Shown here: piece after piece, positions 39,963-51,286 of the stretch
Numbering within the stretch: the stretch's first letter is position 1
How the letters are laid out: each line of letters starts with the position of its first letter
From: a virus
Strand: one strand, 5' to 3'
Virus record (IMG/VR): IMGVR_UViG_3300036781_000418
Span: 62,001 to 126,000 of that record
DNA: 64,000 nt
The notes under the pieces: model-generated
Databases searched by the model: none
The model's input: the letters and a program-made list of their open reading frames with translations, nothing else
Told to the model about the DNA's origin: nothing
Translations under genes and position numbers: made by a program

Positions 39963-40163
39963 ATGAGAACCGTACAGCACATGTTTATGCCCACGCAGAC
40001 GATCAACGGGGTGATCAAGAAGGCCAACCTTCATGACGTCACCCCGTTGGAGTTGATTGAGCTCAACACCTCGTTCAACGAACTGAACGAGGGTCGCGTG
40101 CCGAGACCCGGTCAGGTCTTCACCGTGCCGATCCTAGACCGTCACTCGTCTACTGGACCGTAG
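39963..40163 (+). CDS. Small LysM-like protein
   Basis: 66 residues, the only rightward gene in the first 51 kb. Residues 27-57 (TPLELIELNTSFNELNEGRV and PGQVFTVPIL) fit the second half of a LysM module, as found in peptidoglycan-binding and baseplate proteins. No clear ribosome site is visible. It overlaps the convergent CoA-type gene by 22 nt. The reading frame and motif make it believable, but it is short. Confidence 0.6.
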   Translation: MRTVQHMFMPTQTINGVIKKANLHDVTPLELIELNTSFNELNEGRVPRPGQVFTVPILDRHSSTGP

Positions 40164-41269
40164 CACCACTTCATGCGGAGCTGGTCAAGCGTGTTGGTGG
40201 ACACGAGCGGCTTGACAATGACACGCCACTCCTCCACGGACATGGCGCCCTTGACAAAGGACGAGCTGAGGGTCAGGAATTCTGGCTTAGGCAGCAGGTA
40301 GCAGATCGTCACGTGCGGTGAGATCCGACGGTTTGCGTCCAACAGGGCGCGCTCGTACTCTAGGTCCGCCGCACCTCGAATTCCACGGAACAGAATTGTC
40401 GCTGACAAGTCCGACGCCGCGCCAGCTACTGACTTACGATCCTTTAGTCCAAGCACGATGATGTTCTGCTGCGGCAGGCTCTGAACGTCGTGCAGCACCA
40501 TCTCGTTGATCTCGAACTCGCTGAACAGCGTCTTCTTGGCCGGGTTGGACGCACAAACAACGTACAGACGGTCAACGCACTTGGCGGCCTCGTTGATCAT
40601 GTCAAGGTGTCCAAGCGTAATTGGGTCAAAGGTGCCAGCGAACGCGCCAATTCTGGCGGTAGCCGGAACTTTCGATTGGGCACGAACGTCGTTGATCAAG
40701 ATGGCGACTTGTCGGTCCACATCATAACAGGAGGTGTCGAGTGTACGAACCTTCTCTCCAACGCCAATCACGCTGCGGATGTCGTTTGCACGTTGGAGAC
40801 GCAGCACCGTGCTGATCTTTTCATTCGACCAACCACGCTCTTTCAACCGCTCCAGTTGAACATGCTCACGCACACTGGCGTGAACGATGAGGTCGGCTTC
40901 ACACACGGCTTGCTTATCGTCCATCATACCAAGGTGCGGGTACTCGACGATGACGTCCATGTTCTTCATGACGTTTGCGACGAACTGCAGCACATGGGGC
41001 TTCGTTTCAGCCTCCATGAACTCGCGAACTTCAGACTGCGCGAAGGCCACCTCACGAAGTTCACCAAGCCCGACCTCACGACCAATTAAGACCCACAGCG
41101 CGGTGCGCGAAGCCCGCATCTCGGGGGTTGTCTGGTTCGGCAGTCCGAACCAGTACTGGCGGATAAAAGCGTCTACACTGAAGACACTGTAGTCCCCAAG
41201 GCCGGCGCCGAGCTTCTCGACGATGGTTGATTTGCCCGAGGCTGCTTGGCCGACGACGATGATCTTCAT
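40142..41269 (-). CDS. Kinase-PPAT fusion (CoA-synthase-like)
   Basis: 375 residues in two domains. Residues 1-200 are a P-loop kinase resembling dephospho-CoA kinase: GQAASGKST (7-15), VDAFIRQYW (32-40), EYPHLG (109-114), and a lid region QLERLKERGWSNEKISTVLR (138-157). Residues 207-365 are clearly phosphopantetheine adenylyltransferase: AGTFDPITLGHLDM (211-224) with the TxGH motif, NPAKKTLFS (242-250), RGIRGAADLEYE (295-306) and SSSFVKG (335-341). One polypeptide could thus do the last two steps of CoA synthesis. Domain order is the reverse of the animal bifunctional enzyme. Confidence 0.88.
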   Translation of the reverse strand: MKIIVVGQAASGKSTIVEKLGAGLGDYSVFSVDAFIRQYWFGLPNQTTPEMRASRTALWVLIGREVGLGELREVAFAQSEVREFMEAETKPHVLQFVANVMKNMDVIVEYPHLGMMDDKQAVCEADLIVHASVREHVQLERLKERGWSNEKISTVLRLQRANDIRSVIGVGEKVRTLDTSCYDVDRQVAILINDVRAQSKVPATARIGAFAGTFDPITLGHLDMINEAAKCVDRLYVVCASNPAKKTLFSEFEINEMVLHDVQSLPQQNIIVLGLKDRKSVAGAASDLSATILFRGIRGAADLEYERALLDANRRISPHVTICYLLPKPEFLTLSSSFVKGAMSVEEWRVIVKPLVSTNTLDQLRMKWCYGPVDE

Positions 41270-49045: not shown

Positions 49046-50566
49046 TTACTTTCCTAGCTTCGCGTTCAACGCGTCAATTTGACCGTTCAGCGTTGTTACC
49101 TGGGCCTGGTGAATGGACAAGTTTTCATCAATGCCAGACAGGTCACGCTTAAGGTCACTCACGGTAAACTGCAGGCTCTGGGCTGTAGCCGTATCTGGCG
49201 GTGTCTGTGCAAGGGCCTCTTGGATGAGCGCCTCTTGGTTGGCGATGTCCGCTAGCTTGTTGGTGCGTGCCTGCGTAATGGAGTTAACGATCGACTGTTC
49301 ACTGTCTCGCGTGCTAGTCTTGCTGCTGATGGAGGCCAACGTTTCCTTGTCGTCGGAGGCTGGGGCGACTGCCGGCTGCGAGGTCTCAGGCGTGTCCGTG
49401 TTCGATGGGGCGGCCGTCGCGGCGTCAGCCGACACCGGTGTAGTAGCCGAGGCGGTGGTCGTGGCGGTAGCCGCACGTTGGGAGTCACCGGTGTCGCTCG
49501 TGCCTGACGGCTGCACGACCCCATTGGTGACCTGCTGCTGGCCACCAGTTGGCTCGCCGCTGCGGGTGGATACGGTGGACGGTGGTGTGGTGTTCCAAGC
49601 GGCCTCAATGAAGCCACGACGGAAGGCGACGAGGTTGAAGCTGTTGAACTGTTCAGCCGACAGGGACTCAACTAGGTCGATGGAGACGCTCAACACCGAC
49701 GGAAATGGTACCTCCTTGTTGGAGGTCTTGTCAAAGATGCCCGTTGGCAGCCAGTCAACGTCGTCCGGCCACGTCCACTGTAGTCGCGTCAACACGACTG
49801 AAATTGGACCTAGCAAGTTGCGCCAACCGAAGAGCTCCAGCACCGGAGGCGGCGCGCCAAGCTTACCCTGAAACTGAATTGCCTGGTTTTCACCGAAGTA
49901 CGGCTTCGTCCAACCACGCAGGGTGTTGAGGTAGATGTAGTTACGACGCGCCTCTTCACGAGTACGACACGTGAACTTCGCGTTCGAGATGTTGTACTGG
50001 CCTGAAGACGAGCCCTTGTACTTTTGAAACTCACCTGGCATCTGCGACGGTGACAGCGCCTCGTAGTTGGCCGTGTAGGACTCACTGACCTGCGGCATGA
50101 TCTCGAACAGCACCTCGTCTTCACTGAGCGGTTCAATCGCCAGCAGTGGACCGAGGTCGGTGATCGAACTTGACGCACCGTCGGCAACCTTCGCCCGCAG
50201 CTTGACGATATGGCTGTTGTCGTCCGTCTGTTCTGGACCGATGGCCTCACGCACCTGCGTGGCCGTAAACGAGCTTGGTGTGGCCGCTAGCTTTGCGCCT
50301 TCAGATGAGGCCATCGAGCTGTATGGGTTGTCGGGCAACGTCAGACCAGAGGAACCAACGGCCCCCAACGATGAGAAGGTCGGTGCATCGCTCGTCATCT
50401 TGCTGAACGACGTCGAGGCCGCGCTACCAAACGTGCTGTTCATGCTCGTGTACGACTCGTTGATGACCTTCGTCGAGTCAGCCACCGAGTAGTTCAACAC
50501 CGAGTCGGACGTTGAACCGACACCAAGGGTTGGTAGGGTTGGAAATAGAGATGATAGTGCGGCCAT
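49046..50566 (-). CDS. Baseplate tube-junction protein, gp48-like
   Basis: 506 residues. The core at about 150-310 fits proteins that cap the baseplate and start the tube: VLFEIMPQVSESYTANYEAL, GQYNISNAKFTCRTREEARR, LRGWTKPYFG, LGAPPPVLELFGWRNLLGPI, SVVLTRLQWTWPDDVDWLPT, SVLSVSIDLVESLSAEQFNS. The last 150 residues are Thr/Ala/Ser-rich and end in a coiled coil (QAQVTTLNGQIDALNAKL). Start and upstream stop share a base. Confidence 0.78.
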   Translation of the reverse strand: MAALSSLFPTLPTLGVGSTSDSVLNYSVADSTKVINESYTSMNSTFGSAASTSFSKMTSDAPTFSSLGAVGSSGLTLPDNPYSSMASSEGAKLAATPSSFTATQVREAIGPEQTDDNSHIVKLRAKVADGASSSITDLGPLLAIEPLSEDEVLFEIMPQVSESYTANYEALSPSQMPGEFQKYKGSSSGQYNISNAKFTCRTREEARRNYIYLNTLRGWTKPYFGENQAIQFQGKLGAPPPVLELFGWRNLLGPISVVLTRLQWTWPDDVDWLPTGIFDKTSNKEVPFPSVLSVSIDLVESLSAEQFNSFNLVAFRRGFIEAAWNTTPPSTVSTRSGEPTGGQQQVTNGVVQPSGTSDTGDSQRAATATTTASATTPVSADAATAAPSNTDTPETSQPAVAPASDDKETLASISSKTSTRDSEQSIVNSITQARTNKLADIANQEALIQEALAQTPPDTATAQSLQFTVSDLKRDLSGIDENLSIHQAQVTTLNGQIDALNAKLGK

Positions 50567-51201
50567 TACTTAGCGTCCTTGATCTTCTTAGCCATGATCT
50601 TAGCCACGTTGTCGGGCAAGCCAGTAATCACCTTGAACTTGTCGTGCATGTCCTTCCGAGCGGCGGTGCGTGCCAACGTGCCGGAGACCAGCTCCAGTGG
50701 AATTTCGTCGGTCATGTTGTTCAAGATTTCGTCGGAGCCACCACTGTCGTCAGAATCTTCATCACGGCCGACGTTGATCATGTAGTGCTTGATTGGCTGC
50801 TCGTCGTCCGTCTTCAGGTACTTGTTCATCAGGTCCACGTACGTGCGCCCACGGTCCGAGCCGGTCATGACGACCAACGGCTCCTTGCCCTGCTCACGTA
50901 GCTTGTTCAGGGCCGCCATGACGTCGTTGGCGTGTACGAAGTTGATGCCGTCCGCCTTACCGGACGCCTGCATAAACTTGATGCGGTCCTCAGGCGAGAG
51001 TGGGTTACGGTTCTTATCCTGTCCAGACTTCTCACCATGGATCACCGCAACGACCGGGGTCACGTCGAGGTTGAGCTCCTTGCCCTTCGGTCCACGCGTC
51101 GCCTTCTTGGCCCGTTCAAAGAGGGCGTAGTGGGCGATGGTCGGCGGTTGAAACCGCCCAAACATGACCAGCACCGGTGTACGAGATGTGGGATTTGCCA
51201 T
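50566..51201 (-). CDS. Nucleotidyltransferase (NMNAT-like)
   Basis: 211 residues from ATG at 51201; the longer frame would include the late promoter. VLVMFGRFQPPTIAHYALFE holds the HxGH-superfamily motif (TIAH here), then RNPLSPEDRIKFM, LVVMTGSDRGRTYVD and SGTLARTAA, the usual ISSTxxR position. Such enzymes transfer AMP or CMP; an NMN adenylyltransferase-like role in NAD metabolism is possible. It heads the baseplate operon, which is odd for an enzyme. Confidence 0.8.
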   Translation of the reverse strand: MANPTSRTPVLVMFGRFQPPTIAHYALFERAKKATRGPKGKELNLDVTPVVAVIHGEKSGQDKNRNPLSPEDRIKFMQASGKADGINFVHANDVMAALNKLREQGKEPLVVMTGSDRGRTYVDLMNKYLKTDDEQPIKHYMINVGRDEDSDDSGGSDEILNNMTDEIPLELVSGTLARTAARKDMHDKFKVITGLPDNVAKIMAKKIKDAK

Positions 51202-51229
51202 TGATCGTGCAGCGTAAGTGGGTATGTCA

Positions 51230-51235
51230 TATTTA
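51230..51235 (-). promoter_or_regulatory. Late promoter, baseplate operon
   Basis: CTAAATAT on the minus strand, 28 bases before the nucleotidyltransferase ATG. It would drive the leftward genes to about 43.8 kb. Confidence 0.65.
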
Positions 51236-51286
51236 GATCGAGAGTAGGTCCTTGATCCTGACACCAATGGACCGTGTTCAGGTCGT

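What the first reader, a model, noticed from the sequence alone, without database searches (positions are those of the whole stretch)
40142..41269. Phage-encoded kinase-PPAT fusion covering the last two steps of CoA synthesis
One chain has a dephospho-CoA-kinase-like P-loop domain followed by a phosphopantetheine adenylyltransferase with all main motifs (GTFDP, TxGH, RGIRG, SSS-VK). The known bifunctional animal enzyme has the opposite domain order. A phage carrying this suggests takeover of CoA, and with the NMNAT-like gene at 50566, of adenylated cofactors in general.
Basis: partly seen in the sequence, partly recalled or inferred. Interest (0 to 1): 0.75.

Follow-up and report, generated by a model that had tools for sequence, protein, structure and literature searches.

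The report
Jumbo-phage kinase-first CoA synthase fusion
A giant bacterial virus encodes one protein that fuses relatives of the last two enzymes of coenzyme A synthesis, in the reverse of the order used by the animal enzyme; both genes occur together in other large phages, so this looks like a real but previously little-noticed viral cofactor-making device whose kinase half still has to be proved active.

Summary
Window 40142-41269, minus strand, is one 375-aa ORF in a 342,591-bp jumbo-phage record. Residues 206-365 are a canonical PPAT/CoaD (TIGR01510 107.5 bits, cut-off 103.3). Residues 1-199 are a very divergent CoaE-type kinase: the best P-loop kinase model is TIGR00152 (E 1.3e-7), but 31.7 bits is below its 65.55 cut-off. 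The catalytic residues aligned to known CoaE (Lys, Asp, lid Arg) are kept. A predicted model matches solved dephospho-CoA kinases best, though that alignment contained CoaE rows.

The strongest new evidence is context. Other large viral contigs carry coaE->coaD gene pairs in the same order with 4-nt overlaps (5 contigs), coaD->coaE pairs, PPAT-first fusions (2), and another kinase-first fusion (364 aa, identical in two assemblies). None of 80 bacterial coaE loci has coaD within 3 kb. So this is most likely a phage bifunctional CoA synthase, making CoA from host 4'-phosphopantetheine. DPCK activity is inferred, not shown.

The '50566 NMNAT' is only a generic nucleotidyltransferase; NMNAT-Nudix and NAMPT-family genes lie elsewhere in this genome. 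coaD and coaE in viromes were already reported; the kinase-first fusion is the new variant.

The parts
40142..41269 (-). Fused gene, 375 aa: CoaE-like kinase followed by PPAT/CoaD
   Evidence: ORF; families; stops in other frames
40670..41269 (-). Kinase domain, residues 1-200 (CoaE-like, divergent)
   Evidence: TIGR00152 E 1.3e-7 over 4-162; hhalign to CoaE profile E 7.4e-7, prob 91.8; AF2 pLDDT 84.8 with CoaE rows, top PDB matches dephospho-CoA kinases, TM to 0.74
41225..41251 (-). P-loop GQAASGKST, residues 7-15 (Lys13)
   Evidence: invariant G12 K13 S14 in A5/A6; Lys14 of M. tuberculosis CoaE binds ATP (PMC3019153)
41171..41173 (-). Asp33, aligned with the CoaE catalytic Asp (Asp32 in M. 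tuberculosis)
   Evidence: invariant column; role from PMC3019153
40847..40849 (-). Arg141, aligned with CoaE lid Arg140
   Evidence: invariant, nearly invariant; essential in PMC3019153
40655..40675 (-). Short junction, residues 199-205 (SKVPATA)
   Evidence: no in-frame ATG and no stop here; the nearest in-frame start-like codon is TTG at 191, without an evident ribosome-binding site
40175..40654 (-). PPAT/CoaD domain, residues 206-365
   Evidence: TIGR01510 107.5 bits over cut-off 103.3; most of the domain at AF2 pLDDT 84-98; PDB best matches PPAT, target TM up to 0.93
40607..40636 (-). GTFDPITLGH, residues 212-221
   Evidence: invariant or near-invariant in 26 rows
40376..40387 (-). RGIR, residues 295-298
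40259..40267 (-). SSS, residues 335-337, of the SSSFVK motif (335-340)
   Evidence: S335 and S336 nearly invariant; S335-S337 and K340 shared with L192
41275..41280 (-). Likely ribosome-binding site AAAGGA, 5 nt before the ATG
   Evidence: sequence

Best explanation
The gene encodes a phage bifunctional CoA synthase with the kinase domain first. The PPAT domain adenylates host-supplied 4'-phosphopantetheine to dephospho-CoA (homology and active-site residues shown; activity inferred). The N-terminal CoaE-type domain phosphorylates the 3'-OH of dephospho-CoA to CoA (homology shown, activity inferred). It most likely arose by joining an adjacent coaE-coaD gene pair of the kind seen, unfused and in the same order, in other jumbo-phage contigs. 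It would keep CoA supply up during infection alongside a separate NAD module (NMNAT-Nudix plus NAMPT-family) in the same genome.
For: PPAT over curated cut-off, invariant motifs, PPAT fold. Kinase: the best P-loop kinase model is CoaE, E 1.3e-7, next kinase-type model 0.0024; CoaE profile beats 5000/5000 shuffles even with residues 1-20 held; hhalign E 7.4e-7; top 13 PDB fold matches are dephospho-CoA kinases; Lys13, Asp33, Arg141 kept (roles PMC3019153). Context: coaE->coaD ATGA-overlap pairs in L056, L062, L119, L120, L121, whose CoaE pass the curated cut-off in the three tested; kinase-first fusion in L183/L192 with PPAT over cut-off and CoaE E 4e-13; PPAT-first fusions L015, L178 passing both cut-offs; 12 of 30 PPAT-bearing viral contigs have a full-length CoaE; 0 of 80 bacterial coaE loci have coaD within 3 kb. 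NAMPT and NMNAT-Nudix in the same genome.
Against: The kinase scores far below the CoaE cut-off (31.7 vs 65.55 bits) and below Pfam CoaE (15.1 vs 27). The PLLxE element that contacts dephospho-CoA is altered (YPHLGMMDD) and poorly modelled (pLDDT about 60). The good kinase model used CoaE rows; without them the domain is low confidence, and in the viral fold library dephospho-CoA kinase ranks only 17th by E-value. CoaE homologues can lack the activity: two in Thermococcus kodakarensis did (PMC6650551). No close relative of the window protein itself was found.
Confidence: 0.63

Rival explanations
1. The PPAT half is active, but the N-terminal domain is a drifted CoaE relative that no longer makes CoA: it phosphorylates another acceptor, or only scaffolds or regulates.
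For: Sub-threshold CoaE score, altered PLLxE region, very long PPAT branch (2.1-2.3 changes per column) showing fast divergence; precedent of inactive CoaE homologues in T. kodakarensis.
Against: Asp33, Lys13 and the lid Arg, the residues most needed for CoaE catalysis, are kept; kinase and PPAT are coupled again and again in phages, which argues that the CoA pathway is the selected function.
Confidence: 0.28
2. The apparent fusion is an assembly or base-calling error joining two overlapping genes (coaE and coaD).
For: Related contigs have coaE->coaD overlapping by 4 nt in different frames, so a single indel could create a false fusion; this sequence is one metagenomic assembly with no close relative.
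Against: No ATG start for PPAT at the junction in any frame and no overlap motif; a linker joins the domains; a second kinase-first fusion is identical in two assemblies.
Confidence: 0.04
3. The enzyme mainly serves another adenylylated cofactor (for example NMN or another phosphate ester), not CoA.
For: The nucleotidyltransferase superfamily is promiscuous in annotation; NMNAT models also match the first part of the domain; PPAT genes sit near NAMPT in some phages.
Against: It passes the PPAT equivalog cut-off while NMNAT models are far below theirs; a separate NMNAT-Nudix gene is present; pairing with CoaE is specific to CoA.
Confidence: 0.05

Closest known systems
Animal CoA synthase COASY (bifunctional PPAT-DPCK)
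   Same: Last two steps of CoA synthesis joined in one chain
   Different: Order is PPAT then DPCK; here kinase then bacterial-type PPAT (TIGR01510), in a phage. Phage contigs L015 and L178 do have the animal-like order
Bacterial CoaD (TIGR01510) and CoaE (TIGR00152), separate enzymes
   Same: Each half belongs by homology to one of these
   Different: Separate, unlinked genes in bacteria (0 of 80 coaE loci had coaD within 3 kb); kinase half here far below the family cut-off
Archaeal arCOG04076-PPAT fusions (PMC6650551)
   Same: Prokaryotic fusion of PPAT with a dephospho-CoA kinase
   Different: That kinase is non-homologous (thiamine-pyrophosphokinase-like); here it is P-loop CoaE-like
coaD and coaE auxiliary metabolic genes in snow viromes (PMC11097641)
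   Same: Viral coaD and coaE already reported, together with NAMPT and nadM
   Different: The passages read report abundant genes and describe no fusion, gene order or overlap
Phage NAD salvage/reconstitution enzymes (NAMPT, NMNAT; NARP pathways, PMC12774641)
   Same: Phage-encoded cofactor rebuilding; this genome has NAMPT-family and NMNAT-Nudix genes
   Different: Concerns NAD, not CoA; any defence role of the CoA genes is untested

Membership tests
PPAT / CoaD (TIGR01510) | Score over curated equivalog cut-off | tested here: met
   107.5 vs 103.3 bits
PPAT / CoaD (TIGR01510) | Active-site motifs GxFDPxTxGH, K, RGxR, SSS | tested here: met
PPAT / CoaD (TIGR01510) | Adenylylation of 4'-phosphopantetheine | not testable with these tools
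   needs enzyme assay
Dephospho-CoA kinase CoaE (TIGR00152 / PF01121) | Score over curated cut-off | tested here: not met
   31.7 vs 65.55; 15.1 vs 27. Homology is still significant
Dephospho-CoA kinase CoaE (TIGR00152 / PF01121) | P-loop Lys, catalytic Asp, lid Arg | tested here: met
   K13, D33, R141 aligned with conserved CoaE columns
Dephospho-CoA kinase CoaE (TIGR00152 / PF01121) | PLLxE element of the dephospho-CoA pocket | tested here: inconclusive
   YPHLGMMDDKQ; alignments differ in whether MMxD replaces LLxE; low local confidence
Dephospho-CoA kinase CoaE (TIGR00152 / PF01121) | CoaE fold | tested here: inconclusive
   Model matches CoaE best, but CoaE rows were in the input alignment; without them low confidence
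Bifunctional CoA synthase (COASY-like) | PPAT and DPCK in one chain | tested here: met
   One ORF with both homologous domains; met as domain content, not as activity
Bifunctional CoA synthase (COASY-like) | PPAT domain before kinase domain | tested here: not met
   Kinase 1-199, PPAT 206-365
NMNAT (window gene at 50566) | Score over an NMNAT family cut-off | tested here: not met
   Best NMNAT-type hit 14.6 vs 397 bits; PHROG 'cytidyltransferase'

The most novel reading that the evidence does not exclude
Jumbo phages carry a mobile CoA-rebuilding module (coaE/coaD as pairs or fusions in both orders, often with an HD hydrolase and near NAMPT/NMNAT) that restores CoA as well as NAD, possibly against a host defence that depletes CoA.
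Probability: 0.1. Interest if true: 0.85.

Novelty: new variant of a known kind. Interest (0 to 1): 0.55.

Why it matters
If it works as inferred, a phage makes the last two steps of CoA with one enzyme whose architecture is the mirror image of the animal CoA synthase. The repeated pairing and fusion of coaD and coaE in large phages, in both orders, points to selection for CoA supply during infection and makes 'why does a phage need CoA?' directly testable. The two fusion orders also offer a natural test of whether order matters for channelling.

Tried and rejected
Close relatives by 8-mer peptide scans of viral contigs and of genomes: none; none for a neighbouring 714-aa protein, so the exact phage lineage has no near relative here. 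CoaB (DFP) in this genome: none. CoaE by Pfam in the whole genome: no hit at 1e-3, in line with the divergence. Full-length AF2 with PPAT rows only left the kinase poorly modelled; an alignment with CoaE rows misplaced them on the PPAT half and was not used. A single origin of the two kinase-first fusions is neither supported nor rejected (AU p 0.451). I rejected 'another kinase family' as the leading reading because no other kinase model comes near CoaE in score. One search was a mistaken call and has no bearing.

Full report
What is there. Window 40142-41269 on the minus strand is a single 375-aa ORF. The window lies at 62001-126000 of a 342,591-bp virus record. The gene starts 1 nt after the stop of an upstream ORF with an AAAGGA site before its ATG. 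Neighbours on the same strand include tail, neck and baseplate-type genes and a MazG-like gene (the baseplate reading is partly by eye). The record is a jumbo tailed phage; its neck protein is distantly like those of Xanthomonas XacN1, Stenotrophomonas CM1/RAS14 and other jumbo phages, with no DNA-level relative among 50,697 phage records.

The PPAT half. Residues 209-365 match TIGR01510 at 107.5 bits, above the curated 103.3 cut-off. G212, F214, D215, P216, T218, H221, K245, G296, R298, D302 and E306 are invariant and G220, R295, S335 and S336 nearly so across 26 rows. The domain is predicted with mostly high confidence and matches solved PPATs, with target TM up to 0.93. I count membership in CoaD as met at sequence level.

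The kinase half. Residues 4-162 match TIGR00152 at E 1.3e-7 but only 31.7 bits, cut-off 65.55; no other kinase model comes near (next 0.0024). Pfam CoaE is sub-threshold. An 18-row CoaE profile built without the window scores 28.1 bits, above every one of 5000 shuffles (max 11.8) and of 5000 shuffles with residues 1-20 kept (max 19.8), and it ranks this ORF first in the phage genome. hhalign against that profile gives E 7.4e-7. Lys13, Asp33 and Arg141 align with the residues that bind ATP and catalyse in M. tuberculosis CoaE (PMC3019153). The PLLxE element of the dephospho-CoA pocket is altered. AF2 with CoaE rows gives pLDDT 84.8, and the 13 best PDB matches are dephospho-CoA kinases. Without CoaE rows the domain is not confidently folded, so the fold evidence is not independent of the alignment. 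In BFVD the E-value ranking is mixed; the annotated viral dephospho-CoA kinase has the highest TM of those listed (0.63) but rank 17.

Is it one protein? Both other frames carry 16 stops. There is no ATG at the start of the PPAT domain in any frame (the nearest, at codons 182-183 of another frame, run into a stop at 191); the nearest in-frame start-like codon is a TTG at residue 191 without an evident ribosome-binding site. A second kinase-first fusion exists: L192 (291,658-bp contig) and L183 (37 kb) encode the same 364-aa protein with CoaE at 1-185 and PPAT at 192-352. Its PPAT passes the cut-off (134.1 bits) and its CoaE match is E 4e-13, 49.6 bits, also under cut-off. The two fusion proteins align end to end at 23%. 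A tree can neither join nor separate them, so one origin or two is open.

The family context. Five viral contigs (L056, L062, L119, L120, L121) carry coaE then coaD in the fused order, overlapping by 4 nt (in L121 the PPAT start is read from the sequence, since the longest ORF starts earlier); the three CoaEs tested pass the curated cut-off. L194 has coaE then coaD almost touching. The opposite order occurs as overlapping genes (the 735-kb phage LR756501 in L008, and L013, L182) and as fusions (L015, L178), the latter passing both cut-offs. L014 and L022 have the two genes on opposite strands, next to each other. In 30 PPAT-bearing viral contigs, 12 hold a full-length CoaE match. None of 80 bacterial CoaE loci has PPAT in the fetched 3-kb flanks; that control was chosen by similarity to phage CoaE, and some flanks are shorter. 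Pairing is thus a repeated phage trait, and the window gene is its fused, most divergent form. PPAT-HD fusions also occur (L004, L066/L176, L201), and HD genes sit just before the PPAT-CoaE fusions.

Wider cofactor genes. This genome encodes an NMNAT-Nudix homologue (genome 189992-191134; NCBIfam E 3.8e-74, below its cut-off) and a NAMPT/nicotinate-phosphoribosyltransferase-family enzyme (194845-196377; 421 bits over 405). A NAMPT homologue occurs in 13 of 27 examined records. No CoaB/DFP match is in this genome, though some other phages have one. So, if active, the fused enzyme would draw on host 4'-phosphopantetheine.

Most likely working. PPAT makes dephospho-CoA, the attached CoaE-type domain makes CoA. 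Shown: domain homologies, retained residues, fusion, recurring linkage. Inferred: both activities, benefit in infection. Main rival: an inactive or re-purposed kinase, a real risk because two CoaE homologues of Thermococcus kodakarensis had no such activity (PMC6650551).

Known and new. coaD and coaE have been listed as abundant virome genes, with NAMPT and nadM (PMC11097641). PPAT-DPCK fusion is general in eukaryotes, and many uncultured archaea fuse PPAT with an unrelated kinase (PMC6650551). I found no report of a CoaE-first fusion in the literature held here, but only open-access papers were searchable and bacterial proteomes were not exhaustively searched. That the animal enzyme has PPAT first is taken from the usual name and order PPAT-DPCK and from general knowledge. 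I file it as a new variant of a known kind: a kinase-first CoA synthase of phages, with membership in CoaE not claimed because its curated cut-off is not met.

Noticed in passing
L107:7492-8634 and L107:12345-13877 (genome 189992-191134 and 194845-196377): NMNAT-Nudix homologue and NAMPT/nicotinate-phosphoribosyltransferase-family gene 4 kb apart: a likely NAD salvage module of this phage.
   Followed up: partly
window 50566-51267, minus strand: Cytidylyltransferase-like gene next to baseplate-type genes, ending where the 49046-50566 ORF begins; distant relatives in cyanophages. Role unknown.
   Followed up: partly
L066:2944-4104, L004:3986-5146, L201:3986-5098: PPAT fused to a C-terminal HD-type hydrolase domain; in L066/L176 a NAMPT gene is just upstream.
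   Followed up: partly
L015:2539-3669 and L178:3986-5128: Phage PPAT-CoaE fusions in the animal order, passing both curated cut-offs, each with an HD gene just upstream.
   Followed up: partly
G027 (536-kb contig) 416395-416745 and 415217-415807; LR756501 218576-219133: CoaB/DFP-like genes in large phages that also have coaD and coaE, in G027 about 0.6 kb from coaE: a longer CoA pathway in some phages.
   Followed up: no
L192:1278-2168: A protein resembling tRNA-His guanylyltransferase (recognised by eye) near the second kinase-first fusion.
   Followed up: no
L014:2347-3594: CoaE at the C-terminus of a 415-aa ORF with an unidentified N-terminal 225 aa.
   Followed up: no
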